Shown piece after piece: positions 1,418-16,258 of a stretch of 36,996 nucleotides of DNA. Position 1 is the stretch's first letter. Each line of letters starts with the position of its first letter. A program made the position numbers and the translations under genes. Origin of the DNA: Reyranella massiliensis 521 (GTDB taxonomy: Bacteria > Pseudomonadota > Alphaproteobacteria > Reyranellales > Reyranellaceae); contig CAMARK010000047.1 of the NCBI GenBank assembly GCA_945860205.1, positions 1 to 36,996 on the forward strand, written 5' to 3'. Under the pieces are notes generated by a model that was not told the DNA's origin, searched no databases, and worked only from the letters and a program-made list of their open reading frames with translations.

Positions 1418-2056
1418 ATGCCGAATAAAATGACCCGCCTCTACCTGATATCCCCCGAGCGCATCGAGCATCCCACGATCTTCGCAGACGATCTGCGGGC
1501 GGCGTTGAATGGCGGCGATGTCGCCGCCTTCCAGCTTCGCCTGAAGGACGTGGCCGACGACGCGATCGCGCGCGCCGCCGACACGCTGCGGCCGATCTGC
1601 CAGCAGCGCGACGTGGCCTTCATCCTGAACGACCGGCCCGACCTCGCGGCGAAGCTCGATTGCGACGGCGTGCATGTCGGCCAGGAAGACATGCCCTATG
1701 CCGAGGCGAGGCGCATCGTGGGGCCCCAGCGGCAGATCGGCGTCACCTGCAAGGCCTCCCGCGACCTCGCCATGACGGTGGGCGAGGCCGGCGCCGATTA
1801 CGTGGCCTTCGGCGCCTTCTTTCCCTCGAACACCAAGGCCATCACCACGCCCGCCTCGCTCGAGATCATCGAGTGGTGGAGCGAGCTGTTCGAGATCCCG
1901 TGCGTGGCGATCGGCGGCATCACGGTCGAGAACTGCCGCCCGGTGATCGCGGCCGGCGCCGACTTCCTGGCAGTTGCCGGCGGCGTCTGGAACCACAAGG
2001 ACGGGCCCGAGGCGGCCGTCCGCGCCTTCAACGAGATCTTTTCAGCGGACCGGTAG
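1418..2056 (+). CDS. thiE: Thiamine-phosphate synthase
   Basis: At 212 aa this is the normal length for ThiE, which joins hydroxymethylpyrimidine diphosphate and thiazole phosphate to make thiamine phosphate in the cytoplasm. Family motifs appear in order along a TIM barrel: the QLRLKD pyrophosphate-contact strand, [30 protein letters not shown] (the G-x-S/T-C loop), [16 protein letters not shown], and the phosphate-binding VAIGGIT near the C-terminus. GGAG lies about 12 nt before the ATG, rather far; a second ATG four codons in is an alternative. No other thi gene is nearby and I see no THI-box riboswitch in 1301-1417. It converges on epmA and their 3' ends overlap by 15 bp. Confidence 0.9.
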
Positions 2057-3037
2057 CCACAGCACGTCTTCTATGTGCGAAGCTCCCGTCGCCAGCATCA
2101 CCAGCCGGTCGAACCCGAGCGCGATGCCGGCGCAGTCAGGCAGGCCGTGATCGAGGGCCGCCAGGAAATCGCCGTCGACCGGCCAGCGCAGGCCATAGAG
2201 CCTTTCCTTCTCGTCCATGTCGGCGGCCAGCCGTGTCCTCTGAATCGCGGGATCGGTGAGCTCGCCGAAGGCGTTGGCGAGTTCGACACCGCAGGCATAG
2301 AGCTCGAAGCGCTCGGCCACGCGCGGATCGCCTGGCTTGGCGCGTGCGAGCGCCGCCATCGCGATCGGATATTCGCAGAGGATGGTCGGTCGCCCCATGC
2401 CGAGCCGCTTCTCGATCTTCTCGAACATGACGCGGAAGAAGACATCGTCCCAGCTATCGCCCGCATGCATCGCTACCCCGGAGACATGGGAGAGTTTCTC
2501 GGCACTGCCGACCGTTGCGAACAGGTCGACGCCGGCGTGGCGCTGGAAAGCCTCGGCCACGGTCAGGCGCTCGGGCTCGGCCCGGGGATCGCAGCGATGA
2601 TCCCGCCAGCGCAACTCCTCGACGCCAGTGAACGCCAGCAGCGCCGCGCAATCGGCCATGATCGTCTCGTAGCCCACCCCGGCGCGATACCATTCCAGCA
2701 TGGTGAATTCCGGATGATGGAGAGCGGAGCCCTCGGCGTTGCGGAACACGCGCGCGAACTGGAAGAGTTTTGGGATGCCGCCGGCCAACAGCTTCTTCAT
2801 CGCAAACTCGGGCGAGCTGTGCAGCCAGCGTTCGCGTTCCTCGCCGTCGGGCAGTTCCCATTCCGTGGCGAAACCGGAGAGATGCACTTCGGCGCCCGGC
2901 GCCACCTGCAGGATCGGCGTCTCGACCTCGACGAAGCTCTCGGTCGCGAACCACTGCCGCATCGCCGCCTGCAAGCGGGCGCGGGCCGCCAGATGCGGCA
3001 GGCGTCGGCTGAGCTTATCGGGTCGCCACTCGGTCAT
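2042..3037 (-). CDS. epmA: EF-P--(R)-beta-lysine ligase (lysyl-tRNA synthetase-like)
   Basis: EpmA (GenX/PoxA/YjeA) resembles the catalytic core of class II lysyl-tRNA synthetase without the anticodon-binding domain and attaches beta-lysine to a conserved lysine of EF-P. The 331 aa fit the short EpmA form. Class II motifs can be read: motif 2 as [13 protein letters not shown] followed by [13 protein letters not shown], and motif 3 as [12 protein letters not shown] at the C-terminus; [11 protein letters not shown] is the active-site strand typical of LysRS relatives. The ATG at 3037 was chosen because homology begins there; upstream in-frame residues look like spurious extension. Its substrate gene efp lies 0.5 kb away on the other strand. 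EpmB, the lysine 2,3-aminomutase making beta-lysine, is not in the window. Confidence 0.88.
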
Positions 3038-3084
3038 GCCGGACCATCGCATGCGGCGTGGGCGCCGTGTAGGGTGCGGCCGCG

Positions 3085-3447
3085 ATGGCACCCTCCATGA
3101 CTCCCAGGCAGATTGACGCTTTCTGCAGCAAGCTGCCGGCTGCAACCCGCACCGTGCAATGGGAGGGCGTCATCGTCTTCAAGGTCGGCAGCAAGATGTT
3201 CTGCCTGATCGCGCCGCCCGACCATTCGGTTGGCCGGGTCTGCTTCAAATGCCCACCCGAGCACTACGAGGCGCTCAGCCGCTCCGAAGGTTTCCGCCCG
3301 GCACCCTATCTGGCACGCGCCAAATGGGTGGCACTCGACGACCCAAGGATCCTGACGCCGGCCGAGACCAGGGCCTACATCAAGCGGGCCCATGCCGTGA
3401 TCGCCGCCGCCCTGCCGAAGAAGAAACAGGCCGAACTGAGGCTCTAG
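3085..3447 (+). CDS. MmcQ/YjbR family protein
   Basis: The 120-aa protein matches the small MmcQ/YjbR fold (CyaY-like DNA-binding family): an N-terminal helix with CSKLPAATRTVQWEG, then VFKVGSKMFCLI, FKCPPEHYEALS, then PAPYLARAKWVALDD, ending in a basic helix. The family has no firmly established biochemical role, and DNA binding is shown for few members. The start could be ATG 3085 or ATG 3097; both lie before the conserved core. It is divergent from epmA across 47 bp, so the two promoters must be closely packed, and it is codirectional with efp 118 bp downstream. Confidence 0.8.
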   Translation: MAPSMTPRQIDAFCSKLPAATRTVQWEGVIVFKVGSKMFCLIAPPDHSVGRVCFKCPPEHYEALSRSEGFRPAPYLARAKWVALDDPRILTPAETRAYIKRAHAVIAAALPKKKQAELRL

Positions 3448-3490
3448 GCCCGGTTGCGGGGCCCCGCCGCCTTTGATAGAAGGCCGCCCG

Positions 3491-3524
3491 TCGGCCTCGG
3501 CCCGCGCCCCGCGGACGAGGCCGA
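3491..3524 (+). promoter_or_regulatory. Stem-loop in the efp leader
   Basis: TCGGCCTCG (3491-3499) pairs with CGAGGCCGA (3516-3524) in a perfect 9-bp stem, 42 bp before the efp start. No T-run follows. It may be a weak terminator for the yjbR-like gene or a leader structure; function is unknown. Confidence 0.35.
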
Positions 3525-3565
3525 ATTCCATTCATCCAAACCTACGACGAGACCCCGGTAAGCCC

Positions 3566-4135
3566 ATGAAAGTTCCCGTCAATTCCATTCGCGCCGGCAA
3601 CGTCATCGAATACAACGGCAAGCTCTGGGTCGCGTCCAAAGTCGAGCATATCAGCCCCGGCAAGGGCGGCGCCTTCGTGGCTATCGAGGCCAAGGCGCTG
3701 CGCGAGGGCAATAAGCTGCAGGAACGCTTCCGCTCCGGCGAAACGATCGAACACGTCCATATCGACGACCGCGAGTGCACCTTCTTGTTCAAAGACGAGA
3801 ACGGCTACACCTTCATGGACAAGGAAAACTTCGAGCAGCTGGCGGTCGGCTCCGACGTCCTTGACGCCGATCTCGCCCGCTTCCTCCAAGACGGCATGGA
3901 AGTCTCCGTCTCGCTCTACGAAGGCACGCCGGTCGGTATCGAACTGCCCAAGACCGTGACGCTCTCCGTCATCGAGGCCGATGCCGTGGTCAAGGGCCAA
4001 TCGGCTTCCTCGTCGTACAAGCCCGCGGTCGTCGAGGGCGGCATCCGCGTGATGGTGCCGCCGCATATCGGCGTCGGCACGCGCCTCGTCATCAACACAG
4101 AGGATGGCAGCTACATGGAACGTGCCAAGGATTAA
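3566..4135 (+). CDS. efp: Translation elongation factor P
   Basis: EF-P binds the ribosome between the P and E sites and relieves stalling at consecutive prolines. The 189-aa protein shows the KOW-like N-terminal domain with the modification loop SPGKGGAF, whose Lys33 is the expected target of EpmA, then the OB domains with the family signature around GIELPKTVTLSVIEAD and the C-terminal GTRLVINTEDGSYMERAKD. The ATG at 3566 gives the canonical MKVPVNSIRAG start. The nearby epmA supports beta-lysylation rather than rhamnosylation (which uses an Arg-type EF-P). The following gene begins within about 90 bp. Confidence 0.95.
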   Translation: MKVPVNSIRAGNVIEYNGKLWVASKVEHISPGKGGAFVAIEAKALREGNKLQERFRSGETIEHVHIDDRECTFLFKDENGYTFMDKENFEQLAVGSDVLDADLARFLQDGMEVSVSLYEGTPVGIELPKTVTLSVIEADAVVKGQSASSSYKPAVVEGGIRVMVPPHIGVGTRLVINTEDGSYMERAKD

Positions 4136-4220
4136 CTGCACCGTGGCCCTTCCCACCGATCGCCCCCCCAGAGACCGCCCCCTCGGCGATCGTCCCGTTG
4201 CGCGCATCGGCCGTGCCCCG

Positions 4221-5087
4221 ATGGCGCCGGGCCGCGAGCGCTCGGGTCCGCCCGAACGTCGTTCTCTGGCACCGCGCTCGGCCACCATCACCGTGATGAT
4301 CCGTGCCGCTTTCGCGGCGGCCAAGAACCTGAAGCGCGACTTCGGCGAGGTAGAGAACCTGCAGGTCTCGGAAAAGGGGCCGGGCGATTTCGTCAGCCAC
4401 GCCGACATCAAGGCCGAGCGCGTGCTCCGCGCCGAGCTGTTGAAGACGCGGCCGGAATACGGCTTCCTCGGCGAGGAAAGCCGCGAGACCAAGGGCGACG
4501 GCCGCAACCGCTGGATCGTCGACCCGCTCGATGGCACCACCAACTTCCTCCACGGCGTGCCGCACTTCGCCATTTCGATCGGCCTGGAGCGTGACGGCGA
4601 GATGTTCGCGGCCGTCGTCTACCAGCCGATCTCCGACGAGCTGTTCTGGGCCGAGAAGGGCAGCGGCGCCTACATCGACACGCCGGCCGCCCGTTCGCGG
4701 CGGCTGCGCGTCTCCGGTCGCAAGGATCCGGCGCGCGCCCTGGTCGGCACCGGCATCCCGCACATCGGCAAGGGCGGTCACGCCGACTATCACGCCAAGC
4801 TCGCTTCCGTGACCGAGCGCACCGCCGGCGTCCGCCGCTGGGGCGCGGCGGCGCTCGACCTCGCCTTCGTGGCGGCCGGACGCTTCGACGCGTTCTTCGA
4901 ATTTGGCCTGGCATCCTGGGACGTCGCCGCCGGTCTTCTGCTGGTGCGCGAAGCCGGCGGCTTCGTGGGCGACATTTCGGGCCAGCCCTACGTCCTGGGC
5001 GGCCCCTCGATCCTGGCCAGCAATGCCGGCTTGCGCGATCCGATGATCGAGATCCTCACAGGCAGCCGGCCAACCGAGTCACTCTAG
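4221..5087 (+). CDS. suhB: Inositol monophosphatase family protein (SuhB-like)
   Basis: This Mg-dependent sugar-phosphatase-fold enzyme probably dephosphorylates inositol-1-phosphate or a related phosphate; bacterial SuhB can also act in rRNA antitermination. Metal-binding motifs are intact: GEESRE, WIVDPLDGTTNFLHG, and ASWDVAAGLLLVREAGG near the C-terminus. From ATG 4221 the product is 288 aa; homology to the family begins around SATITVMIRAA about 22 residues in. The frame stays open upstream, overlapping the end of efp, and a GTG at 4143 would add an Arg/Pro-rich tail containing RDRP and GDRP, so the true start is uncertain. Position behind efp suggests cotranscription. Confidence 0.85.
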   Translation: MAPGRERSGPPERRSLAPRSATITVMIRAAFAAAKNLKRDFGEVENLQVSEKGPGDFVSHADIKAERVLRAELLKTRPEYGFLGEESRETKGDGRNRWIVDPLDGTTNFLHGVPHFAISIGLERDGEMFAAVVYQPISDELFWAEKGSGAYIDTPAARSRRLRVSGRKDPARALVGTGIPHIGKGGHADYHAKLASVTERTAGVRRWGAAALDLAFVAAGRFDAFFEFGLASWDVAAGLLLVREAGGFVGDISGQPYVLGGPSILASNAGLRDPMIEILTGSRPTESL

Positions 5088-5242
5088 ACGTCGCTCCAAG
5101 CGGATTTCGTCAACCGAAGACGTTATGTCCCCACCGCCAGCCGGTTGAGCAGGAGGGCTCCATTGGCTATTCTCCGCCCGTCAGCGCGCGCCCTTGCTGC
5201 AGACTGTCTCGACTCGCCAAAATCTTTGAAAGGCAATCGGTT

Positions 5243-6247
5243 ATGCCAACGTCTTCGGTCGCCGTGCGCAGTCTCGCTCTTGCGGTTTTGAGCTTTGGTG
5301 CTGCATCGGCCGCCTTCGCGCAGGGATCGAACGTCACCGCCTTCAACCCCTACTCCGGCATCGGCCTGCCGGGCGGGCCGGTGCCGCAATATGGTTCGCA
5401 GGCGGCCTATCCGATCGTCGACACCGTCGGCCCGACGGCCGGTGGGCCGGCCTTCAATCCCTGGCAGCCCGGCGCCAATGTCGGCGCGGCCTATCCGATT
5501 GCTGCCGGTGTCGTTTCTGCTGGTGTCGTCTCCACCAGCGCGGTAGCGGCCGGCGTGCCCGCGCCCAATTACGCCTACAACCCCAGCGCCTACTTGCCGG
5601 CCCCGCCGCCCGGTCCGATCGAGAGCCGCATGGTGGCGATTCCCGAGTTGGGCAACGCGCCATCGCGGCGCGAGAGCTACACGCCGGTGCCGACGTACAC
5701 GCCGCCCCCGCCGCCCGTCGCTCCGCCCGTGGCGGCCCGTCCCGAGCCGACGCCCACGCCGATGCCTGTGGCGGTGCGCGTGGTGCCGCCGCCCGCGGCC
5801 ACTCCAGCGCCTGTTGCCGCCCCCGTCGTGGCGACGCCCGCCCCCACGGTCGCTGCCCCGGCACCAGCGCCACCGCCGCCGGCACGCGCCACGGCAGCCG
5901 CCGCCCCACCTCTGCCGCCCGAGCCCGCAGTTCAGCCGCCCAGGGGCACCGTCGCCGCGACCATCGCCTTTACCGGCCAGTCGGCGGAACTGAACGACGC
6001 GGCCAGGACCGATCTTGATCGCCTGGCCAAGAACCTCGGCGATCGCAGCCTGCGCCAGATCGAGATCCGCGCCTATGCCGGCGGCGCCGATCCGGACAGC
6101 CGCAAGATCTCACTTGCCCGCGCTCTGGTCGTCCGCAGCTACCTGATCGACAAGGGCGTGAAGACCCGCATCGAGGTTGGAGCCTACGGCGGCGACAGCA
6201 GGGGCGGCAGCAGCGACCGGGTGGACATACTGGTGCCCAACTCGTGA
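5243..6247 (+). CDS. Secreted OmpA-like protein with Pro/Ala-rich linker
   Basis: The 334 aa comprise a signal peptide (cleavage predicted after AAFA, about residue 26), a Gly/Tyr/Ala-rich region to about 120, a long Pro/Ala/Val linker (about 125-235) with runs such as TPPPPPVAPP, and a C-terminal OmpA-like domain (about 245-334). The domain is recognisable from IAFTGQSAELNDAARTDLDRLA and KISLARALVVRSYLIDKGV, but the peptidoglycan-contacting GHTD is replaced by a divergent AYAGGADPDS and the terminal NRRVE by SSDRVDI. It is probably a periplasmic or outer-membrane protein; peptidoglycan binding is uncertain. GAAAGG lies about 10 nt before the ATG. The motor-like pair begins 36 bp downstream. 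Confidence 0.72.
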   Translation: MPTSSVAVRSLALAVLSFGAASAAFAQGSNVTAFNPYSGIGLPGGPVPQYGSQAAYPIVDTVGPTAGGPAFNPWQPGANVGAAYPIAAGVVSAGVVSTSAVAAGVPAPNYAYNPSAYLPAPPPGPIESRMVAIPELGNAPSRRESYTPVPTYTPPPPPVAPPVAARPEPTPTPMPVAVRVVPPPAATPAPVAAPVVATPAPTVAAPAPAPPPPARATAAAAPPLPPEPAVQPPRGTVAATIAFTGQSAELNDAARTDLDRLAKNLGDRSLRQIEIRAYAGGADPDSRKISLARALVVRSYLIDKGVKTRIEVGAYGGDSRGGSSDRVDILVPNS

Positions 6248-6283
6248 TCGATCTTCAGCCACACCACGGTCGTAGCTGAACAC

Positions 6284-7435
6284 ATGAGCAATCCCCTGCC
6301 CTATCTGATCCGGATGCTGCTGTTCCTGGTAGCCGTCGGCGTTCTCGCCTACGTCCTGCACGAGGACCTGCTGCGCGTGTTCCTGAACACGCCGATACTG
6401 AACGGCGTCATCGTGGGCGTGCTCGTGATCGGCATCTTCTTCGTCATGCGCCAGGTCATCTCGCTGTGGCCCGAGGTGCGGTGGCTGCGCCGCTTCCAGC
6501 ACCGTGAGCAGGGCGCGCCCCTGCTCGAGACCCATACGATCAACCTGCTGGCGCCGATGGCTGCCATGCTGGGCGAGCGGCAGGACAATTTCCGGCTTTC
6601 GCCGACGGCCACGCGCGCCATGCTCGACGGCATCGCCACCCGCCTCGACGAGCGTCGCGAACTCACACGCTACCTGATCGGACTGCTGATCTTCCTCGGC
6701 CTGCTCGGCACCTTCTGGGGTCTGCTGGAGACCATCGGCGCGGTTGCCGACGCCATCAACGGCCTGCAGGTCACAGGCGGCGATGCCGTGCAGATGTTCG
6801 CCAAGCTCAAGGCCAGCATCGATGGCCCGCTGAAGGGCATGGCGACGGCATTCGGCGCCTCGCTGTTCGGCCTCTCCGGCTCGCTGGTCCTGGGCTTCCT
6901 CGAACTGCAGGCGAGCCAGGCGCAGGGTCGCTTCCATATCGAACTCGAGGAGTGGCTGGCCGGCGCTACCCACCTCTCCAGCAGCAGCCTGCACGGCGAG
7001 GGCGAACAGGGCGTGTCGGCCTATGTCGAGGCGCTGCTCGAACGCACCGCCGATGGGCTCGACGATCTCACCCGCACGCTCCGGCGCAGCGAGGAGAGCC
7101 GCGAGGCAACAGCCAACGCCAGCGCCACCTTGGTGGAGCGTCTTGCCGCCCTGGCCGAGACCATGCGCGCCCAGCAAACCCTGCTTGCCCGCCTGGCCGA
7201 GCATTCGATCGAACTTCGCGGCACGGTCAACCGCCTGTCCGAGCGTTCGCCGGAAGGCGACCGCGAAACGCTGCAGATCCATCAGCGCAACATCGAGGCG
7301 AACCTCGTCCGCCTCGTCGAGGAAAGCGTGCGCAGCCGCACCGCCCTGGCTGACGAACTACGTGGCGAGTTCCGCCTGCTTGCCCGGACCATTGCCTCGA
7401 CCCGCGGTCAAAGCCTGCCTCCGGGCGAAGGCTAG
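6284..7435 (+). CDS. MotA/TolQ/ExbB-type proton channel family protein with long coiled tail
   Basis: The 383-aa protein has hydrophobic segments at about 8-27, 39-57, 131-155 and 186-207, and a polar, probably coiled-coil cytoplasmic tail from about 210 to the end. The MotA/ExbB core signature is clear in GLLGTFWGLLETIGAV (third segment) and in PLKGMATAFGASLFGLSGSLVLGFL (fourth). Such subunits form pentamers that use ion flow to turn or push a dimeric partner, here almost certainly the next gene, 6 bp downstream, which has the MotB-like plug and Asp. No flagellar genes are near, so a flagellar stator is unlikely; a Tol/Exb-like or unassigned envelope motor fits better. The roughly 170-residue tail exceeds TolQ and ExbB and recalls ZorA-like proteins. 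Confidence 0.8.
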   Translation: MSNPLPYLIRMLLFLVAVGVLAYVLHEDLLRVFLNTPILNGVIVGVLVIGIFFVMRQVISLWPEVRWLRRFQHREQGAPLLETHTINLLAPMAAMLGERQDNFRLSPTATRAMLDGIATRLDERRELTRYLIGLLIFLGLLGTFWGLLETIGAVADAINGLQVTGGDAVQMFAKLKASIDGPLKGMATAFGASLFGLSGSLVLGFLELQASQAQGRFHIELEEWLAGATHLSSSSLHGEGEQGVSAYVEALLERTADGLDDLTRTLRRSEESREATANASATLVERLAALAETMRAQQTLLARLAEHSIELRGTVNRLSERSPEGDRETLQIHQRNIEANLVRLVEESVRSRTALADELRGEFRLLARTIASTRGQSLPPGEG

Positions 7436-7441
7436 CCGGAT

Positions 7442-8641
7442 ATGGCCGGCGCCTCGTCTCGCCGCCGTGCCGGAGCCGCCGACTATACTTGGCCCGGTTA
7501 CGTCGACGCGCTCACGACGCTGTTGATGGTGCTGATCTTCCTGCTGTCTCTGTTCAGCGTCGCGCAGTTCACCCTGTCGGACACCCTGAACAATCGCGAC
7601 AGCTCCATCGCCTCCCTCAACAAGCAGATCGGCGACCTGGCAAGCCAGTTGTCGATCGAGAAGACGGCAAGCCAAGGGCTTCAACAGGATATCGAGAAGC
7701 TCACCCTGCAACTTCGTCAGTCGAGCAGCGAACGCGACCGGCTGAGCGTGGACCTCGCCACCGAACGCCGGACAGCCGACGGGCTTAAGATCGAGCGCGA
7801 CCAGCTCACCGAACGCCTGACCTCGATGCTCGCCGAGCACGAGCGGCTTGCCGACGCCCTGAAACAGAGCACCAGCGACGCAGAGGCCAAGAGCGCCTAC
7901 CTGCAGAAGGAAATCGAACGCCAGAGGCTCGAGCTCACGCGCCTGGCGGCCTCGCTTGCCGCCGCGAACGACGAGAAGGGCAAGTTCTTCACCGATCTCA
8001 CCGAGGAGCAGAAGCTTTCGGCGGAGCAGAAGGCCGCCGTCGTGCGACTCACCGCTGAATTGTCCGGACTCAAGGATGAACTCGCCCGCCTCAACGTCGC
8101 GCTCGATGCCGCCGACACGAAGGCCAAGGACCAGCAGGTCCAGATCGTCGACCTCGGCCAGAAACTCAACCGGGCGCTCGCCGCCAGGGTCGAAGAGCTG
8201 GCGCGCTATCGCTCCGAATTCTTCGGCAAACTGCGCGAGGCGCTGGCCGGCCAGCGCGATGTCCAGATCGTGGGCGACCGCTTCGTCTTCCAGTCGGAAG
8301 TGCTGTTTACCTCGGGATCGGCGGTCCTGCAGCCCGGCGGCGAGAAGCAACTCGCCAGCGTCGCCCAGCGACTGGTCGATATTTCTTCCCGCATCCCCAA
8401 GAACATCAATTGGGTGCTGCAGGTCGACGGGCACACCGACAGCACACCGATCAGCAACGCGATCTTTCCGTCCAACTGGGAGCTGTCCGCCGCCCGGGCG
8501 ATCGCGGTGGTGAAGTTCCTGCACAAGGAAGGCATCCCGAACGATCGCCTGGTGGCCGCCGGCTACGGCCAGTACCAGCCGCTGTCGACCATCGACACCG
8601 CCCGCAACCGGCGCATCGAGCTGAAGCTCACGAATCGCTAA
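7442..8641 (+). CDS. MotB/OmpA-type peptidoglycan-binding motor subunit
   Basis: The 399 aa consist of a short cytoplasmic N-terminus, one membrane helix (about 24-46), a long coiled coil (about 50-255) rich in Leu/Glu/Lys/Gln heptads, and an OmpA domain (about 275-399). The WPGYVDALTTLLMVLIFLLS entry into the membrane matches MotB, with Asp22 at the position of the proton-carrying Asp. The OmpA domain is canonical: LFTSGSAVLQPGG, VDGHTDSTPI, WELSAARAIAVVKFL, GYGQYQPLS and NRRIELKL, so it should bind meso-diaminopimelate peptidoglycan. It forms a two-gene unit with the upstream channel subunit. The stop overlaps the end of the convergent DUF1489 gene by 3 bp. Confidence 0.83.
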   Translation: MAGASSRRRAGAADYTWPGYVDALTTLLMVLIFLLSLFSVAQFTLSDTLNNRDSSIASLNKQIGDLASQLSIEKTASQGLQQDIEKLTLQLRQSSSERDRLSVDLATERRTADGLKIERDQLTERLTSMLAEHERLADALKQSTSDAEAKSAYLQKEIERQRLELTRLAASLAAANDEKGKFFTDLTEEQKLSAEQKAAVVRLTAELSGLKDELARLNVALDAADTKAKDQQVQIVDLGQKLNRALAARVEELARYRSEFFGKLREALAGQRDVQIVGDRFVFQSEVLFTSGSAVLQPGGEKQLASVAQRLVDISSRIPKNINWVLQVDGHTDSTPISNAIFPSNWELSAARAIAVVKFLHKEGIPNDRLVAAGYGQYQPLSTIDTARNRRIELKLTNR

Positions 8642-9069
8642 AGCAACCCAAGTCGTTTCAGTTCGGCTGCCATTTCCGCCGGCATGTCGCTGGTGTCGCC
8701 GTGCGACAGGTCGGGCGGCGCGCCTTTGGGATCGAGGTAGCGCCAGCCCTGGAAGGCCTTGCAGGCCTGGGGCGTCGTCGGCACCAGGGTCCGCCGGACC
8801 TTGATCCGACAGTATTTCCGGGCCTCCTCGCGGTCGAAATCCTGCTCGAAGCCGACCAGTTCCTGGCGGCAGCGGATGACCCCGCGCACCACCCAGTAGA
8901 GCGAGCCACCCGCGAGCAACTCCTCGGAGCGTTTGGGCGTATTCCTTGTGTAGACCCAGTGGGGAGAGCGCGGGCTTTGCCGGCGCTGCTTGCGGCGCGC
9001 CGACTGGACCACCTTCATATGGGCGATGTCGTCCACGCCGACAGCGAGCTTGATGAGATGCAACACCAT
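8638..9069 (-). CDS. DUF1489 family protein
   Basis: The protein has 143 aa from the ATG at 9069. It carries the family pattern: opening MVLHLIKLAVGVDDI, the central GGSLYWVVRGVIRCRQ, and the C-terminal block ACKAFQGWRYLDPKGAPPDL. DUF1489 proteins are short cytoplasmic proteins common in Alphaproteobacteria and of unknown function. The start at 9069 is preferred because homology begins with MVLHLIKL; an in-frame GTG at 9099 would add ten unconserved residues. It converges on the MotB-like gene. The 160 bp between it and the alpha-2-macroglobulin gene contain both divergent promoters. Confidence 0.82.
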   Translation of the reverse strand: MVLHLIKLAVGVDDIAHMKVVQSARRKQRRQSPRSPHWVYTRNTPKRSEELLAGGSLYWVVRGVIRCRQELVGFEQDFDREEARKYCRIKVRRTLVPTTPQACKAFQGWRYLDPKGAPPDLSHGDTSDMPAEMAAELKRLGLL

Positions 9070-9110
9070 CGCTTGCGATAGAACGCAATGCGAAGTCACT
9101 CAAGCGGGGC

Positions 9111-9187
9111 CTATCCACAGCGTGTCGGCAGCGCCACAGCCCGGAAACATTCACAATGCCCCCGGCAGTCTCCACAGTGTCTTCACA
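9111..9187. promoter_or_regulatory. Cluster of DnaA-box-like CACA motifs
   Basis: Four 9-mers resemble TTATNCACA: CTATCCACA (9111-9119, 8 of 9), ACATTCACA (9147-9155, 7 of 9), GTCTCCACA (9168-9176) and GTCTTCACA (9179-9187), all on one strand and with the last two 11 bp apart. They fill the gap between two divergent genes. They could be DnaA or another regulator's sites; only one is a strong match, so the call is tentative. Confidence 0.3.
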
Positions 9188-9228
9188 ATCGGCGGCTTAG
9201 ACTGTGTTCGCTCGCTGTGGGGGTTCTC

Positions 9229-12200
9229 ATGAATAAGTCGACGCTGACTGCTTTGATCGTGGCTCTGATGCTGGGATCGGGCATCGCGGGCTACCTCATC
9301 GGAACGCCGAGCGAGCACCTAGACCGCGCTTCGCTGCCACCCCGCACCGCCTCGACGATCACATCCACCCCGGTTGCGCCCACCGTACCGGCCGCACCTG
9401 CCGCCCCGGCTTCAGGCAGCCTGGCGCCAACGCCGATCGCCCAGCCAGCCGCCGCTCCCAACGAGCCCTTCGCCTACCGCCGCCTCGGCATCGACAGTTC
9501 GCGCGCCGATGGCGAAGCCTGCCTCGCCTTCAACAAGCCGCTGGCCACCGGCGACGTGAAATACGCCGACTACGTCCGTATCGAGCCGGAGGTGAAGTCG
9601 GCATTGCGCGTGGTCGACGACCGCCTGTGCGTCGGCGGCCTCGCCTATGGCCAGGACTACAAGGTCAAGCTGCTCCAGGGCTTCCCCGGCCGCGACGGCG
9701 CCAAGCTCGAGACCGAACGGACGGTGGATGTCGCGATGGGCGCGCGCCCGGCCGTCGTGACGCTGCCCGGCAAGGGTTTCATCCTGCCGCGCGGCTCCGC
9801 CGCCGGTCTTCCCGTTACCACCATCAACGTCTCCAAGGTCGGCTTCGCCGTCTATCGCGTCAACGAACGCGCCATCGAGCGCTTCGCCGGCGACCGCTAC
9901 GACGCCACCTTCCCCGGCTCGGAGCCGATCACCGAGTCGTGGTCGCTGCGCTCGTGGCTGAACGGCTCCAACGGCGTCCGGCTGTGGCGCGGCACCATGG
10001 AGGTGCGCAACGTTCCCAACCAGCCGGTGATCACCGCCTTCCCGATCCGCGAGACGATCAAGGACTGGAAGCCCGGCGCGTACTTCGTCGTGGCCTGGAA
10101 CTCGGCACGCCCGCCGTCACAGAACGACGACGATGACGAGGATCAATCCAGTTCCAGCGCTTCGGGCCTCTGGGTGATCGACACCGACATCGCGCTCACC
10201 ACCTTCAGCGGCGACGACGGCCTCAACGTTTTCGCCCGCTCGCTGCAGAGCGCCCAGCCGCTGGCCGGCCTCGAGGTCGTCCTGCTGTCGCGCGGCAACG
10301 AGCCCATCGCCAAGGCCGTCACCGCGGCCGATGGCCGGGTGAACTTTGCCGCCGGCCTGATGAAGGGCCGGGGCGCGGCGGAGCCCGCCGCCGTGATGGC
10401 CTCGGACGCGGCCAAGCAGGAATTCTCCCGCATCGAGCTCAGCAAGGCCGCGTTCGATCTCTCGGATCGCGGCATCGATGGGCGCGCCCAGCCCGGGCCG
10501 GTCGACGCGTTTCTTTATACTGAACGCGGCATCTACCGGCCCGGCGAGACAGTGCGGCTCATGGCGCTGTTGCGCGACCAAGGGGCCACGGCGCTCGCCG
10601 ACATACCCGTGACCCTGATCGTGAAGCGGCCCGACGGCACCGAGTTCACGCGCTTCACCCATGCGCTGCAGGCGGCGGGCGCCGTGCACCAGGCGATCGC
10701 GCTGCCGAAATCGTCGCGCCGCGGCCGCTGGTCGGTGGCCGCCCACATCGACCCCCGGGCCGCGCCGGTCGGCCGCGTCGATTTCTCGGTCGAGGATTTC
10801 GTCCCTGAGAAGCTCAAGGTCGAGCTCACCTCCGACCAGGCGATCCTGCGCCTCGGCCAGGCCAACGGCTTTGCCGTGTCGGCCGACTTCCTCTATGGCG
10901 CGCCGGCGTCAGGCCTCTCGGTCGAGGCCGACATGCGCGTCACCGTCGACGAGCAGCCCTTCCCCGCCTTCGCCAAGTACCGGTTCGGGCCGGAGTCGGA
11001 GCGCGAGAAGTTTGAGCCGCCGTTCATCACACTGACGGCGCCGGAAACCGACGACGCCGGCAAGTCGCGCCTCGAATGGGGTGGCGATCAGGTGAAGGAC
11101 ACGGTCCTGCCGCTCAAGGCGCAGCTCACGGCGCGCGTGTTCGAGCCCGGCGGCGGCCGCGCCACCAAGGCCGACAAGATCGTGCCGATGCGCAGCCGCG
11201 ACGCCTATCTCGGGATCAAGCCCGCGTTCGAGGGCCGCTACTCGCGCGAAGGCATCGATACCGAATTCGACATCGTGGCCGTCGATGCCGCTGGCGCGCA
11301 GATCGCCCGGCCGAACGTCGAATATCGCATCGACCGGATCGAATATGCCTACCAGTGGTACCAGGTCGACGGCCGCTGGCGTTGGCAGGCGATCCCCAAC
11401 GAGCGCCTGCTGATTGCCGACACGATCGCCCTCCAGGCCGACGCGCCGGTGCGCCTCGCACGCCGCCTCACCTGGGGCCCGCATCGCCTCACCATCACCG
11501 ACAAGGAAAAAGACACGTCCAGCAGCACGACGTTCTACGTCGGCTGGTATGGCGGCGGCACTGCCGAGGAGACGCCCGACACGCTCCGCGTGGCGAGCGA
11601 CAAGCAAAACTACGCCCCGGGCGACACCGCGCGGCTGCGCATCGAAGCGCCGTTTGCCGGCGAGGCGCTGATCGCCATCGCCACCGACCGCATCGTCGCG
11701 ACCTACGCCGTCCAGGTTCCCGCCGGCGGCACCACGATCGACGTGCCGATGAAGGCCGAATGGGGCGCCGGCGCCTACGCGCTGGTGACGGCGTGGCGGC
11801 CGCTGTCGGCGCCAGCCGACCGCACGCCGACGCGCGCCATCGGCGCCGTCTGGCTCGCCCTCGATCCGGCGCTGCGTACCCTCGGGGTCCAGATCGGCGC
11901 GCCCGAAAAGGTGACGCCGCGCCAGCGCATCGAGGTGCCGGTGCGCGTCGCCAACCTCAAGGGTGAGGAAGCCTTCATCACCCTGGCGGCGGTCGACGAG
12001 GGCATCCTGCAGCTCACGCGGTTCCGCACGCCTAATCCGGCCGAGTTCTACTTCGGCAAGCGCCAGCTCGGCATCGCCATGCGCGACGACTACGGCCGCC
12101 TGCTCGACGGACGCGCCGACGATCTCGGCCGTATCCGGACCGGCGGCGATTCCGGCGACATCGGCGGCCTCGATATCGTGCCGACCCGCACCGTTGCGCT

Positions 12201-14190
12201 GTTCAGCGGCCCGGTGAAGCTCGACGACAAGGGTGAGGCCAGGATCGCGCTCGATATCCCCGACTTCATCGGCCAGCTCCGGCTGATGGCAGTCGCATAC
12301 GGCAAGACCCGTGTCGGCTCGTCCGAGCATCGCCTGTTCGTGCGCGATGCCGTCACCGCCGACGTCGTGCTGCCGCGCTTCCTGGCACCGGGAGACAACG
12401 GCCGCGTGGCGCTGTCGCTGCACAATGTCGAAGGCCAGGGCGGCGACTACCGGGTGACGATGGAAGCCACCGGCGCCGTAGCGCTTGAACGCCCTTTGGC
12501 CGAGACGCGACGGCTCGCCGCCAACCAGCGCGATCTGCTGACCTGGACACTCCGCGCCGGCGATCCCGGCTTCGGCAAGGTCACGGTCTCGGTGGCGGGA
12601 CCGGGCAACTTCGCGGTCAAGCGCGACTGGGACATCCAGGTGCGGGCGGCGCAGACGCCGAGCGCCATCGACACCGTGGCCCAGCTTGAGCCGGGCCGCG
12701 AACTCACGCTCGACCGCAACGTGACGGCGCCCTTCGCCCCGGGCACAGCGGTGGCGAGCGTGGCACTGTCGCGCACGCCCGGCATCGATGTGCCGGCCCT
12801 GCTGCGCGCGCTCGACAAGTATCCCTATGGCTGCATCGAGCAGACCACCAGCCGCGCCCTGCCGCTGCTCTACTACAACGACGTGGCTCTGCTGGGGTAC
12901 GGGCCGGCCGATCCCCGCATCGGCGATCGTGTCCAGGATGTGGTCTATCGCATCGTCGACATGCAGCTCTACGACGGCTCGTTCGGCATGTGGGGGCCGT
13001 TCGGCAATGCCGCCGCCGAGTGGCTGCAGAGCTACGTCCTCGACTTCCTGCTGCGCGCCCGCGACCAGCAGATGGCAGTGCCGGCGGCGTCGCTGCAGCG
13101 CGGCCTCACCTGGCTCAACCGCACCGCCGACCGCCTGTCGCCCAACGCCCAGGCCTATGCCTGGTTCGTGCTGGCCAAGGCCGGCCTCGCCGATCCCGGC
13201 CGGGTCCGCTACTTCCAGGACACGAAGGGAGCCGAGATCCGGGGCGGCCTCGCCTGGGCCCAGCTCGCCGCGGCACTGAACCAGGTCGGCGAACCCGGCC
13301 GGGCGCGCCTGGCTTTCGAGCTCGCCCGCCGGAACATCGACGAGCGTGATCCCAACGATTACTACGGCTCGCCGCTGCGCAACCGTGCCGCGCTTCTCGC
13401 GCTCGCCTCGGAAGCCGGCGGCCGCGAGGGCGTGACCCTGGTCATGGCCTCGGTGCGTGAGCGCCTGACCGCCCGGATCGAGGACACCACCACGCAGGAA
13501 CAGGCGTGGCTGGTGCTGGCTGCGCGCGCGTTGGCCGGTGGCGGCGACTTCGCCTACGCGGTCGACGGCGTTAGCGCCAAGTCGGCCACCGAACCAGTCG
13601 TGATCAATCCTGACCAGGCCACGATCAACCGCGGGCTCCGCGTCAGGAACGACGGCGACAAGGCCGTCTGGATGCAGGTGACGGCACGCGGCGTGCCGCG
13701 CGATCCACAGCCGGCCGGCGCCAACGGCCTCAGCGTCACCCGGCGCCACCTGACGTTCACCGGCGAACCGGCCGATCTCTCCAAGGTCCGCCAGAACGAC
13801 CGCCTGATCGTGTCGGTGAGCGGCCGCAACCTCGAGGGTGGCTACCACGAAGTGGCGCTGCTCGACCTGCTGCCGGCCGGCTTCGAGATCGAATCGGTGC
13901 TGAACGAGGAGACGGCGAAGTCCTTCCCGTTCCTGTCCAAGCTCACCGTGCCCAGGATCGCCGAAGGTCGCGACGACCGCTTCTTCGCGTCCTTCAACCT
14001 GGGCGACCGGACCTACCGATCCTGGTGGGACAGCGAAAACCGCTTCGGCAACTCCTACCACGTGGCCTACATCGTCCGTGCCGTCACCCCTGGTACCTTC
14101 GCGCTGCCGGCGGTGAACGTCTCCGACATGTACGCCCCGCGCGTCTATGCCCGCAGCGCCATGGGCCGCGTCACGGTCGCGCCGCGCTGA
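9229..14190 (+). CDS. Bacterial alpha-2-macroglobulin family protein (YfhM-like), thioester-containing
   Basis: The 1653-aa protein begins with a signal-anchor (about residues 7-27) followed by a Pro/Ala linker and then macroglobulin domains. The thioester motif is intact: YGCIEQTTS with Cys1202 and the Gln three residues on, followed by the alpha-helical thioester-domain repeats. Bacterial A2Ms trap attacking proteases in the periplasm by a bait-and-crosslink mechanism and are thought to protect the envelope when the outer membrane or wall is breached. No lipobox Cys follows the signal, unlike E. coli YfhM, so it should be anchored in the inner membrane. GGGGG 6-11 nt before ATG 9229 supports this start over an upstream in-frame one. 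pbpC follows after 4 bp, the classical pairing. Confidence 0.93.
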   Translation: MNKSTLTALIVALMLGSGIAGYLIGTPSEHLDRASLPPRTASTITSTPVAPTVPAAPAAPASGSLAPTPIAQPAAAPNEPFAYRRLGIDSSRADGEACLAFNKPLATGDVKYADYVRIEPEVKSALRVVDDRLCVGGLAYGQDYKVKLLQGFPGRDGAKLETERTVDVAMGARPAVVTLPGKGFILPRGSAAGLPVTTINVSKVGFAVYRVNERAIERFAGDRYDATFPGSEPITESWSLRSWLNGSNGVRLWRGTMEVRNVPNQPVITAFPIRETIKDWKPGAYFVVAWNSARPPSQNDDDDEDQSSSSASGLWVIDTDIALTTFSGDDGLNVFARSLQSAQPLAGLEVVLLSRGNEPIAKAVTAADGRVNFAAGLMKGRGAAEPAAVMASDAAKQEFSRIELSKAAFDLSDRGIDGRAQPGPVDAFLYTERGIYRPGETVRLMALLRDQGATALADIPVTLIVKRPDGTEFTRFTHALQAAGAVHQAIALPKSSRRGRWSVAAHIDPRAAPVGRVDFSVEDFVPEKLKVELTSDQAILRLGQANGFAVSADFLYGAPASGLSVEADMRVTVDEQPFPAFAKYRFGPESEREKFEPPFITLTAPETDDAGKSRLEWGGDQVKDTVLPLKAQLTARVFEPGGGRATKADKIVPMRSRDAYLGIKPAFEGRYSREGIDTEFDIVAVDAAGAQIARPNVEYRIDRIEYAYQWYQVDGRWRWQAIPNERLLIADTIALQADAPVRLARRLTWGPHRLTITDKEKDTSSSTTFYVGWYGGGTAEETPDTLRVASDKQNYAPGDTARLRIEAPFAGEALIAIATDRIVATYAVQVPAGGTTIDVPMKAEWGAGAYALVTAWRPLSAPADRTPTRAIGAVWLALDPALRTLGVQIGAPEKVTPRQRIEVPVRVANLKGEEAFITLAAVDEGILQLTRFRTPNPAEFYFGKRQLGIAMRDDYGRLLDGRADDLGRIRTGGDSGDIGGLDIVPTRTVALFSGPVKLDDKGEARIALDIPDFIGQLRLMAVAYGKTRVGSSEHRLFVRDAVTADVVLPRFLAPGDNGRVALSLHNVEGQGGDYRVTMEATGAVALERPLAETRRLAANQRDLLTWTLRAGDPGFGKVTVSVAGPGNFAVKRDWDIQVRAAQTPSAIDTVAQLEPGRELTLDRNVTAPFAPGTAVASVALSRTPGIDVPALLRALDKYPYGCIEQTTSRALPLLYYNDVALLGYGPADPRIGDRVQDVVYRIVDMQLYDGSFGMWGPFGNAAAEWLQSYVLDFLLRARDQQMAVPAASLQRGLTWLNRTADRLSPNAQAYAWFVLAKAGLADPGRVRYFQDTKGAEIRGGLAWAQLAAALNQVGEPGRARLAFELARRNIDERDPNDYYGSPLRNRAALLALASEAGGREGVTLVMASVRERLTARIEDTTTQEQAWLVLAARALAGGGDFAYAVDGVSAKSATEPVVINPDQATINRGLRVRNDGDKAVWMQVTARGVPRDPQPAGANGLSVTRRHLTFTGEPADLSKVRQNDRLIVSVSGRNLEGGYHEVALLDLLPAGFEIESVLNEETAKSFPFLSKLTVPRIAEGRDDRFFASFNLGDRTYRSWWDSENRFGNSYHVAYIVRAVTPGTFALPAVNVSDMYAPRVYARSAMGRVTVAPR

Positions 14191-14194
14191 TCCC

Positions 14195-16258
14195 ATGATC
14201 GGTCGGCGCCTCTTCGTCGGAGTTGCCCTCGCCGCCGCTAGCCTGGCGGCGGGGTTTCTGGCACTCGACCGGCTGTTCCCGCCCAACCTCGGGCGCTACC
14301 AGGAACGATCGACCGAGATCGTCGACGCCAACGGCCGCTTGCTGCGCGCCTTCACCACGGCCGACGGCAAATGGCGGCTCAAGACGACTGCCGACGATGT
14401 CGATCCGCTCTATCTGTCGCTGCTCAAAGCCTACGAGGATCGCCGCTTCGACCAGCACATGGGCGTCGACCCGCTGGCGGCGGCGCGTGCGGCTGGCCAA
14501 TGGATCGGGCGCGGCCGCATCGTCTCGGGCGCGTCGACCCTCTCGATGCAGGCCGCCCGCCTGCTCGAACCGCACCGGTTCCAAGCAGGGGCACGCAGCC
14601 TGTTCACCAAGACGATCCAGTCGGCCCGCGCGCTGCAGCTCGAGTGGCGCTACTCCAAGCGCGAAGTGCTGGCGATCTATCTCACGCTGGCGCCGATGGG
14701 CGGCAATCTCGAAGGCGTGCGTGCGGCCTCCTTCGCCTATTTCGGCAAGGAGCCGAAGCAACTCAGTGCGGCGGAAGCGGCCCTGCTGGTCGCCATTCCG
14801 CAATCGCCGGAGCGCCGCCGGCCCGACCGCGCCGCCGACAGGGCCCAGGCGGCACGGGACCGCGTCCTGGTGCGCGGCCTGGAGCACGGCGTCGTCGATC
14901 AGGCCGCCTACGACAGGGCGATCAGCCGGCCGGCGCCGGCGCGCCGGCTTGCCCTGCCAATGCAGGCGCCGCATCTGTCGGCGTGGCTTGCCGGCCAGTC
15001 GCCAGGCACGGTGGTGCCGACGACGCTGCGCTTCGAGCTCCAGACCGCACTGGCCCAGCTCGCGGCCGAGGAGCGCGGCCAGTTCGCGGACAAGGCCGAG
15101 ATCGCCATGATCGTGCTCGACAACCGCACCGGCGGGGTCGTGGCCTGGCTGGGTGGCTCCGATTTCTTCGGCCGCACCGGCCAGGTCGATCTGGTGCGTG
15201 CGCATCGCTCGCCGGGCTCGGCGCTGAAACCGCTGATCTACGCCATGGCCTTCGACGATCGCACCTTGCACCCCGACACGCTGGTCGAGGATGTGCCGGT
15301 GCGTTTCCGCGACTGGCTGCCGCGCAACTTCGACCGCGACCATCAGGGCGCGGTCACCGTGCGCCGCGCGCTGCAGCAATCGCTGAACGTGCCGGCGGTG
15401 CTGGCAATGGAAAAGGTCGGCCCGCAGCGCTTCCTCTCGACCTTGCGCACGGCAGGCGTCGCGCCCGGCCTGCCGCCGGGCGATGCCGGCAACTCGCTGG
15501 GTATCGCGCTCGGCAGCGCAACGATCTCGCCGCTGGAAATGGCCGGGCTCTACGCCGGCCTCGCCAATGGCGGCAGCTTCGCCCCGCCCATCGTGCGTCG
15601 CGACCGGCCGGTGCCCGCGCCGGTCCGGCTGATCGGCCCGACCGCCGCCTGGTATGTCGCCGAGGTGCTGGCCGATGCGCCGCTGCCCGAAGGCTTCGCG
15701 TCGCTGCCCGTGGCACTGCGCGACCGTCGCATCGCCTACAAGACCGGCACCTCCGCCGGCTTCCGCGACGCCTGGGCAGCGACCTACAGCGCCAACTGGA
15801 CGGTCGTCGTCTGGGTCGGCCATGCCGATGGCACGCCGCGTCCCGGCCAGCTCGGCCGCCTCGCGGCGCTGCCGGTCGCCCTGAAAGCTTTCAGCCGACT
15901 GCCCGCCGAGGACAATCGCGCCACCCCGCCGCCGCCCGACGTGCTGCGCGTCGCCTCCCACCGCGAGCTGCCGCCGCGCATGCGCTCGCTCGCGCCGGCA
16001 GTCGAAGGCCCAAGCGAAAACCGGGGCGGGCCGCGCATCGCCTATCCGCCGGCCGATGCCCGCATCGAACTGGGCGCCCGCGAGGCCGTGCCGCTGCACG
16101 CCCTGGGCGGCGAAGGCCGCCTGCGCTGGCTGGTCGACGGCCGCCCGCTCGACAGCGCCAAATGGGTGCCCGACGGCCCCGGCCAGGCGCGCGTGGCCGT
16201 CGTCGACGAGGCCGGCCGCTCGACCTCGGTGACGGTGCGCATCGTCGAACGGCGCTGA
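14195..16258 (+). CDS. pbpC: Penicillin-binding protein 1C
   Basis: The 687-aa bifunctional class A PBP is membrane-anchored at about residues 5-25. The glycosyltransferase (GT51) domain has AYEDRRFDQHMGVD with catalytic Glu81 and GASTLSMQAARLL. The transpeptidase has S342-x-x-K345 in RSPGSALKP, the SLN triad member at 396-398, and KTGTS from Lys516. The C-terminal 90 residues resemble the BiPBP_C domain specific to PbpC. PBP1C polymerises and is presumed to crosslink or repair peptidoglycan, and its genomic link with A2M suggests a shared response to wall damage. ATG 14195 lies 4 bp after the A2M stop, implying one transcript and translational coupling. Confidence 0.94.
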   Translation: MIGRRLFVGVALAAASLAAGFLALDRLFPPNLGRYQERSTEIVDANGRLLRAFTTADGKWRLKTTADDVDPLYLSLLKAYEDRRFDQHMGVDPLAAARAAGQWIGRGRIVSGASTLSMQAARLLEPHRFQAGARSLFTKTIQSARALQLEWRYSKREVLAIYLTLAPMGGNLEGVRAASFAYFGKEPKQLSAAEAALLVAIPQSPERRRPDRAADRAQAARDRVLVRGLEHGVVDQAAYDRAISRPAPARRLALPMQAPHLSAWLAGQSPGTVVPTTLRFELQTALAQLAAEERGQFADKAEIAMIVLDNRTGGVVAWLGGSDFFGRTGQVDLVRAHRSPGSALKPLIYAMAFDDRTLHPDTLVEDVPVRFRDWLPRNFDRDHQGAVTVRRALQQSLNVPAVLAMEKVGPQRFLSTLRTAGVAPGLPPGDAGNSLGIALGSATISPLEMAGLYAGLANGGSFAPPIVRRDRPVPAPVRLIGPTAAWYVAEVLADAPLPEGFASLPVALRDRRIAYKTGTSAGFRDAWAATYSANWTVVVWVGHADGTPRPGQLGRLAALPVALKAFSRLPAEDNRATPPPPDVLRVASHRELPPRMRSLAPAVEGPSENRGGPRIAYPPADARIELGAREAVPLHALGGEGRLRWLVDGRPLDSAKWVPDGPGQARVAVVDEAGRSTSVTVRIVERR

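What the first reader, a model, noticed from the sequence alone, without database searches (positions are those of the whole stretch)
5243..8641. Non-flagellar ion-driven motor pair with long coiled subunits
A MotA-like channel with a roughly 170-residue cytoplasmic tail and a MotB-like subunit with Asp22, a 200-residue coiled coil and a canonical OmpA domain form a two-gene unit, preceded by a divergent secreted OmpA-like protein. The architecture recalls ZorA/ZorB of the Zorya phage-defence system, but no ZorC, ZorD or ZorE follows. It could be an uncharacterised envelope motor, and the upstream OmpA-like protein could be a partner.
Basis: partly seen in the sequence, partly recalled or inferred. 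Interest (0 to 1): 0.6.

Follow-up and report, generated by a model that had tools for sequence, protein, structure and literature searches.

The report
Conserved uncharacterised ion-driven envelope motor
These genes encode a small ion-powered motor anchored to the cell wall that most alphaproteobacteria sampled here carry as an ordinary chromosomal gene pair; its closest known relative is the motor of a phage-defence system, yet it looks like basic cell-envelope equipment, and I found no report of what it does.

Summary
At 5243-8641 lie a secreted OmpA-like protein, a MotA/TolQ/ExbB/ZorA-type channel subunit with a ~150-residue cytoplasmic helical tail, and a MotB-type subunit with one TM helix, a ~225-residue periplasmic coil and a canonical peptidoglycan-binding OmpA domain. 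Asp22 is invariant (48 of 48 aligned), as are channel residues T143 and S193 (43 of 43, 61 of 61).

The pair is neither TolQR/ExbBD nor a flagellar stator: it forms its own clade (100/100), nearest to ZorA (95/90, only 84 columns). It is not a Zorya system: no Zorya-type neighbour, no phage hit, core-like spread (189 of 289 class genomes, against 8 of 249 for true ZorA3), next to efp and inositol monophosphatase (84 of 100 testable loci). It is independent of flagella (23 of 35 non-flagellate, 27 of 41 flagellate genomes).

Most likely it is a housekeeping, peptidoglycan-anchored 5:2 ion motor of the envelope. A lead: in Sinorhizobium meliloti it lies beside a Sel1 gene that by gene-order count is rgsF, a growth-zone factor. 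The B family is named in NCBIfam (PRK09039) without a function; ten paper searches listed no study of the pair.

The parts
5243..6247 (+). Secreted proline-rich protein ('O') with a C-terminal degenerate OmpA-like domain; 36 bp upstream of the channel gene
   Evidence: family present just upstream of the channel gene in 89 of 111 testable loci
5969..6193 (+). Degenerate OmpA domain of O: Asp of the HTD motif absent in 98 of 98, Arg kept in 96 of 98
6284..7435 (+). Channel (A) subunit, MotA/TolQ/ExbB/ZorA fold, 383 aa
6710..6712 (+). T143 codon in TM3, aligned by motif with the Thr of ExbB/TolQ (GLxGTxxG); invariant
6860..6862 (+). S193 codon in TM4, at the position of the TM4 Thr/Ser of ExbB/TolQ/ZorA by motif; invariant
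6986..7432 (+). Cytoplasmic tail, two long helices (247-321, 324-375); L251 and R360 invariant, several near-invariant residues
7442..8641 (+). MotB-type (B) subunit, 399 aa; NCBIfam NF006543 (PRK09039.1-2), 397.5 bits against a cut-off of 305
7505..7507 (+). Asp22 codon in motif W-P-G-[FYW]-V-D, predicted ion-carrying Asp; 48 of 48
7559..8245 (+). Periplasmic helical coil (about residues 40-268); B length varies strongly between orthologues
8303..8611 (+). Canonical OmpA peptidoglycan-binding domain; D333 and R352 invariant (48 of 48)
3563..4135 (+). efp (elongation factor P), conserved upstream neighbour
   Evidence: 84 of 100 testable loci
4221..5087 (+). Inositol monophosphatase family gene (start codon uncertain), conserved upstream neighbour
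   Evidence: 89 of 100 testable loci
8638..9099 (-). DUF1489 gene, convergent, overlaps the last 4 bp of the B gene: downstream limit of the unit; not part of the motor

Best explanation
A housekeeping, peptidoglycan-anchored ion-driven motor of the 5:2 kind, inherited mainly vertically in Alphaproteobacteria and nearest in sequence to ZorAB. Five A subunits would form a wheel around two B helices (inferred). Ions pass by B-Asp22 along the A-T143/S193 ring (residues shown, flow inferred). B spans the periplasm with its coil and holds the wall with its OmpA domain (binding residues shown, binding inferred). With B fixed, the A ring and its conserved tail turn relative to the wall (inferred), and the tail or the periplasmic accessory proteins pass on the work. 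I think the most likely task is envelope upkeep at zones of wall synthesis and division, as a second machine beside Tol-Pal: in S. meliloti the pair sits near a gene that is, by gene-order count, the growth-zone factor rgsF. The growth-zone role is a weaker inference (about 0.4) than the motor itself (about 0.9).
For: Fold; invariant D22, T143, S193, D333, R352; own clade 100/100, motor+ZorA 95/90, away from TolQ/ExbB 99/97 and MotA 95/78. Spread: A in 189 of 289 class genomes at E<=1e-3, B-family match over cut-off in 168 of 289. Reading both tables by eye, 182 of 184 genomes with A at E<1e-20 have B at E<1e-30, against 1 of the other 105. Synteny efp+IMPase 84 of 100, B next in 115 of 115. 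A distances correlate with EFP (r 0.483) and IMPase (r 0.451), permutation maxima 0.142 and 0.186, n 93. Kept in genomes of 0.7-1.4 Mb. Independent of flagella and alongside PF01618 proteins in 75 of 76 genomes. No phage match; the 5 plasmid-collection hits are 3.5-4.6 Mb replicons. S. meliloti pair 44% and 41% identical, with a signal-peptide Sel1 gene two genes upstream of A; RgsF=SMc03995 is periplasmic, Sel1/TPR, knockouts failed, foci at pole and septum (PMC7327166, passages).
Against: No measurement of ion flow, stoichiometry or phenotype. The tree has 84 columns, long branches and an unsettled bootstrap; ZorA is not one clade in it, and the one ZorA1 row gave no hit to the A profile. 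Best Foldseek E is 1.2e-3; TolQ, ExbB, ZorA and MotA lie close on Z (12.0 to 10.2) with unrelated helical proteins up to 9.5, so structure does not choose among them. 100 of 289 class genomes have no A match. In 5 of 5 small-genome loci looked at, B is not next to A. The Sel1 gene is near the motor in only 11 of 133 loci, 9 on the same strand, and not in the window. O is missing in 22 of 111 loci, one of them from the window's own genus (L033). Identity of the Sel1 gene with rgsF rests on counting genes.
Confidence: 0.6

Rival explanations
1. A stripped Zorya-like anti-phage sensor: ZorAB core with effectors encoded elsewhere or not yet known.
For: Nearest relatives in sequence are ZorA (PADLOC ZorA3 8.1e-11, ZorB3 8.6e-23; A profile hits 8 of 8 ZorA3 frames at 5e-9 to 3e-14; tree). 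Both have a helical cytoplasmic A tail and a PG-binding B subunit (PMC11890865 passages).
Against: Core-like spread and housekeeping synteny, while true ZorA3 (E<1e-100) is in 8 of 249 genomes and ZorA1 (E<=1e-60) in 1 of 200; 0 PADLOC hits in 9 flanking ORFs; none in 50,697 phage records; kept in sub-megabase genomes.
Confidence: 0.08
2. Work is output on the periplasmic side, as in Tol/Ton: the B coil or O pulls on outer membrane or wall, with O in the place of Pal and a TPR/Sel1 protein in the place of CpoB.
For: The linked accessory genes are periplasmic (O; Sel1 protein); RgsF belongs to a network with TolQ (PMC7327166 passages).
Against: B carries an intact wall anchor, the architecture of MotB/ZorB; no TonB/TolA-like protein among the 9 proteins scanned with Pfam; the conserved A tail points to a cytoplasmic output.
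Confidence: 0.25
3. An alternative flagellar stator used under special conditions.
For: MotB-type periplasmic domain closest in fold to MotS/PomB domains.
Against: Own genome and a genus relative have no FlhA match; presence is 23 of 35 in genomes without and 27 of 41 in genomes with FlhA; outside the MotA clade.
Confidence: 0.02
4. A passive or regulated ion leak or mechanosensor that reports wall state through the A tail rather than a rotary motor.
For: No rotor partner is known; the tail has conserved residues up to its end.
Against: The channel and anchor residues of working motors are kept.
Confidence: 0.05

Closest known systems
ZorA/ZorB core of Zorya phage-defence systems
   Same: TM3/TM4 motifs most alike, conserved Asp and Ser/Thr ring, helical cytoplasmic A tail, PG-binding B domain; nearest in the tree
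   Different: No Zorya-type neighbour; A is 383 aa while the PADLOC ZorA1/ZorA3 models hit are 487-1063 positions, B 399 aa against ZorB models of 215-293; core-like spread with housekeeping synteny
NCBIfam PRK09039 family (NF006542-NF006546), 'peptidoglycan -binding protein'
   Same: The window's B subunit passes NF006543 (397.5 of 305 bits), the S. meliloti one NF006544 (692.4 of 362)
   Different: The family name carries no motor role, partner or function
TolQR / ExbBD
   Same: Pentamer-subunit fold (Z up to 12.0), GLxGTxxG motif in TM3
   Different: Separate clade (99/97); B has an OmpA wall anchor and long coil; the own genome has one other PF01618 protein, not further identified
Flagellar stators MotAB/PomAB/MotPS
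   Same: B ends in the same OmpA-type domain (Foldseek MotS 4.0e-10, PomB 2.0e-9)
   Different: A outside the MotA clade; no dependence on flagella
Non-flagellar 'GIT' motors incl. AglRS, surveyed in PMC12505986 (passages read)
   Same: Non-flagellar relatives with varied extra domains
   Different: That paper could discern no OmpA homology in GIT B subunits; the word Alphaproteobacteria does not occur in it; AglRS sequences were not compared here

Membership tests
5:2 ion-driven motor superfamily | A subunit with MotA/TolQ/ExbB/ZorA helical fold | tested here: met
   AF2 model; Foldseek and VIA lists led by this fold; Foldseek E not below 1.2e-3
5:2 ion-driven motor superfamily | Conserved Asp in the B TM helix and Thr/Ser ring in A | tested here: met
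   D22 48/48, T143 and S193 43/43 and 61/61; 115 of 115 loci with a following B ORF carrying the Asp (the finder asks for the motif, no locus failed)
5:2 ion-driven motor superfamily | A5B2 stoichiometry and ion-driven rotation | not testable with these tools
   Only single chains can be modelled here
Zorya system | ZorA/ZorB homologous core | tested here: inconclusive
   Nearest known relatives, but far below the NCBIfam ZorA_2 cut-off (18 of 100 bits), and the single ZorA1 frame was not hit
Zorya system | ZorC/ZorD or ZorE effectors encoded alongside | tested here: not met
   Neighbours are IMPase, efp, DUF1489, alpha-2-macroglobulin, PBP1C; 0 PADLOC hits in 9 flanking ORFs
Zorya system | Patchy, defence-like distribution | tested here: not met
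   189 of 289 class genomes against 8 of 249 (ZorA3, E<1e-100) and 1 of 200 (ZorA1, E<=1e-60) phylum genomes
Flagellar stator MotAB | A subunit within the MotA clade | tested here: not met
   Tree
Flagellar stator MotAB | Found with flagellar genes | tested here: not met
   23 of 35 genomes without FlhA carry A at E<=1e-3; own genome has no FlhA match
TolQR/ExbBD | A subunit within the TolQ/ExbB clade | tested here: not met
   Tree
TolQR/ExbBD | TolA/TonB-type transducer and tol/ton gene neighbours | tested here: inconclusive
   None among 9 proteins scanned in 2042-16258; recurrent neighbours over 87 loci were named only by eye from representatives
NCBIfam PRK09039 (NF006543) | Score over the curated cut-off | tested here: met
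   397.5 bits, cut-off 305
OmpA-domain wall binders (for protein O) | meso-DAP-binding Asp and Arg | tested here: not met
   Asp absent in 98 of 98, Arg present in 96 of 98; which residues bind is recalled knowledge of OmpA

The most novel reading that the evidence does not exclude
Alphaproteobacteria have a second, Tol-Pal-like energised envelope machine akin to ZorAB: an A5B2 motor anchored to the wall, with a periplasmic OmpA-like partner that no longer binds meso-DAP canonically and, in Rhizobiales, the Sel1/TPR growth factor RgsF in a CpoB-like role, powering wall growth and division. Zorya defence would then share a motor with a housekeeping growth machine.
Probability: 0.3. Interest if true: 0.85.

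Novelty: new variant of a known kind. Interest (0 to 1): 0.62.

Why it matters
An ion-driven motor kept across a large bacterial class, down to sub-megabase genomes, has no assigned job. It would add a further lineage to TolQR, ExbBD, MotAB and ZorAB, gives a housekeeping relative against which the origin of Zorya can be tested, and lies near a gene tied to polar growth in a laboratory model (S. meliloti), so its function is directly testable.

Tried and rejected
Flagellar stator: rejected by tree and by presence without FlhA. TolQR/ExbBD: rejected by tree; the own genome has another PF01618 protein, which I did not identify further. Zorya defence: rejected on spread, synteny and neighbours. 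EF-P link: 74 of 98 O frames hold PPP (mean Pro 14.6%), which would suit a gene beside efp, but some loci keep efp+IMPase+motor without an O match (L227, L229-L231) and the S. meliloti locus has no efp match; kept only as an idea. Promoter/terminator scan: nothing above shuffles (0 against 0.4; 4 against 3.1). PDB sequence search with the A profile: 44 hits up to E 1, all to the tail region, no motor protein. First tree had TM3 anchors set wrongly in some rows, which made a false gamma grouping; replaced. The 'O' column and the O count used a crude frame picker that often chose a wrong frame, with stops inside (the window's own included); only one search is used for O. Families not shown in the fold lists are not taken as absent.

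Dropped before counts: L116 (same contig as L115); EXB_L281 and AX_L304 from the tree. Not dropped: a few unnamed and named loci look like the same record (L045/L117, L042/L144), so locus counts include near-duplicates. The co-occurrence figures (182 of 184; 1 of 105) and flagella figures were counted by eye; the 184 leave out 5 of the 189 A matches (G032, G089, G094, G204, G237) as weaker than 1e-20, while the flagella count keeps G032.

Papers: ten searches listed no study of this pair; some lists were capped (10 of 290 shown, 20 of 408). Only listings were seen except: PMC12505986, PMC12204202, PMC11890865 and PMC7327166 (passages), PMC10954123 (abstract and outline). PMC7327166 was found by recall, not by search.
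Full report
What is there. Three same-strand genes lie at 5243-6247 (O), 6284-7435 (A) and 7442-8641 (B). O has a signal-peptide-like start (by eye), a proline-rich middle and an OmpA domain (Pfam 5.5e-9). A scores below the Pfam MotA_ExbB cut-off (16.1 of 22.9 bits) and below NCBIfam's ZorA_2 (18 of 100); its best PADLOC hits are ZorA models at about 1e-10, mainly over TM3-TM4. B passes NCBIfam NF006543, 'peptidoglycan -binding protein' (397.5 bits, cut-off 305). The unit ends in a convergent DUF1489 gene; further on come an alpha-2-macroglobulin and PBP1C, upstream inositol monophosphatase, efp and the EF-P ligase epmA.

Anatomy. The A model (61 rows, pLDDT 82.7, pTM 0.60) shows helices 5-24, 26-33, 37-73, a long TM3 (107-160), a long TM4 (168-234), then tail helices 247-321 and 324-375. 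Foldseek's best rows are TolQ, ExbB and ZorA (best E 1.2e-3). VIA-align gives TolQ 12.0 (rmsd 3.9, 194 aligned), ExbB 11.8, ZorA 11.3 and MotA 10.2, not clearly apart, with unrelated helical proteins up to 9.5. The fold class is therefore clear, the subfamily not. The B model (pLDDT 79.1, pTM 0.41) is helix 21-186, 193-268, then an OmpA fold that matches MotS, PomB and MotB periplasmic domains from 4e-10.

Conservation. T143 and S193 are invariant in two alignments (43 and 61 rows), B D22, D333 and R352 in 48 of 48. By motif alignment T143 and S193 stand where ExbB/TolQ have their TM3 and TM4 threonines and ZorA its Thr and Ser; the role of these residues is recalled knowledge of the family, and PMC11890865 passages describe the Asp and Ser/Thr ring for ZorAB. 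The tail is as conserved as TM1-2 (mean top-residue frequency 0.55-0.65 against 0.59) and L251 and R360 are invariant. B length ranges widely (median 424, maximum 850 aa over 115 complete frames; some of the shortest, down to 153, may be frameshifted).

Spread and inheritance. A matches 189 of 289 class genomes at E<=1e-3 (161 of 235 good-quality ones; 147 of 223 genera). The B family matches over its cut-off in 168 of 289 and in 0 of 14 control genomes, 9 of which match weakly below it. By my reading of both tables, 182 of 184 genomes with A at E<1e-20 have B at E<1e-30; of the other 105, one does. In a phylum draw of 249 genomes, matches at E<1e-80 outside the class occur in 4 genomes of two families. 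Class families f13, f64 and f146, unnamed, gave no match there. Over 119 fetched loci (40 unnamed, 79 named), 100 had enough upstream DNA: efp within 6 kb on the same strand in 84, IMPase in 89, both in 84, neither in 11. Of 115 with enough downstream DNA, 115 have B next; the finder looks for a tryptophan-to-aspartate motif, but no locus failed it. O's domain lies just upstream of A in 89 of 111. A distances correlate with those of EFP and IMPase at least as well as these with each other (0.483, 0.451, 0.367), as expected of mainly vertical descent. No phage record matches. The five plasmid-collection hits are 3.5-4.6 Mb Sinorhizobium/Shinella replicons; the one whose gene table I read carries core genes.

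Place among motors. On 84 ungapped TM3/TM4 columns and 77 rows the pair's A subunits (28 class rows, 3 from outside the class, 1 divergent) form one clade (100/100); motor plus ZorA stand together (95/90), apart from TolQ/ExbB (99/97) and MotA (95/78). Cautions: few columns, long branches, bootstrap not settled, ZorA not one clade. Profile searches agree in part: at E<=1e-3 the A profile hits 8 of 8 ZorA3 frames at 5e-9 to 3e-14, no flagellar MotA, and 3 of 30 TolQ-type frames at 2e-5 or weaker; but it does not hit the single ZorA1 frame.

Not defence, not flagellar, not Tol. True ZorA3 (E<1e-100) is found in 8 of 249 genomes and ZorA1 (E<=1e-60) in 1 of 200, against core-like spread here. FlhA is not found in the own genome and in a genus relative; 23 of 35 genomes without FlhA and 27 of 41 with it carry A. 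PF01618 proteins exist in 75 of 76 genomes anyway, so this motor is extra.

The O protein. Its domain keeps the Arg of the OmpA site (96 of 98) but in no case the Asp of the HTD motif (0 of 98; Ala in 86), whereas B's domain keeps both. O thus probably does not hold meso-DAP as OmpA does. It is missing in 22 of 111 loci, so it is an accessory, not a core part.

A lead to function. In S. meliloti Ak57 the order is thiE, Sel1-repeat gene, IMPase, A, B; A and B are 44% and 41% identical to the window's. Krol et al. 2020 (PMC7327166, passages read) report RgsF=SMc03995, a periplasmic TPR/Sel1 protein whose gene could not be knocked out, with polar and septal foci, whose depletion gives short round cells, and call it the only Rgs protein substantially conserved outside Rhizobiales. 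RgsC=SMc04010 is there a 605-aa M15 peptidase; in Ak57 a 605-aa DUF882 protein lies 15 genes from the Sel1 gene if the insertion sequence is skipped and the one missing locus-tag number counted. So the Sel1 gene is very probably rgsF, and A and B by count SMc03993 and SMc03992: inference, not a look-up. A Sel1 protein of this kind lies within the fetched DNA in 11 of 133 loci, 9 on the same strand, including four loci of two unnamed families (f10, f121) with O present. It is not in the window.

Reading. Shown: genes, fold class, invariant channel and anchor residues, co-occurrence, class-wide spread, synteny, separate clade near ZorA. Inferred: A5B2, ion flow, rotation of A against a wall-fixed B, output by the tail or periplasmic partners, and a role at zones of wall synthesis. 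PMC12505986 passages say that no OmpA homology was discerned in its non-flagellar B subunits, and the word Alphaproteobacteria does not occur in that text; the ten searches named under Tried and rejected listed no paper on this pair. The library lacks most subscription papers, so this is no proof that none exists.

Noticed in passing
window 9229-16258: Alpha-2-macroglobulin gene followed by penicillin-binding protein 1C, downstream of the motor in the window and in L032 and L033 of the same genus, but not found by the same query in the other 38 loci.
   Followed up: partly
window 2042-4135: EF-P ligase epmA lies opposite efp, and the proline-rich protein O is encoded just beyond; 74 of 98 O frames hold PPP. 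A link of EF-P to O's translation is possible but unproven.
   Followed up: partly
L222-L225 (G347, G409, G443, G424): Four genomes outside the class carry the A-B pair with strong scores but without efp/IMPase matches in the fetched 20 kb: possible transfer.
   Followed up: partly
L237-L241 (G005, G132, G234, G085, G103): In small genomes the A gene stands without an adjacent B match, while the same genomes do have a B-family match.
   Followed up: partly
L297-L302 (mostly family f168): A further group of ~330-370-aa MotA-like proteins between ZorA and the other motors in the tree; some genomes hold several; partners not examined.
   Followed up: no
L307 (CP090106.1): A 3.7 Mb S. meliloti record labelled 'plasmid pSymB' carries core genes such as tkt, gap, phosphoglycerate kinase, rpmE and zapA, so it is probably the chromosome mislabelled.
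   Followed up: no
L157, L168: B frames of 804 and 850 aa, presumably with very long coils.
   Followed up: no
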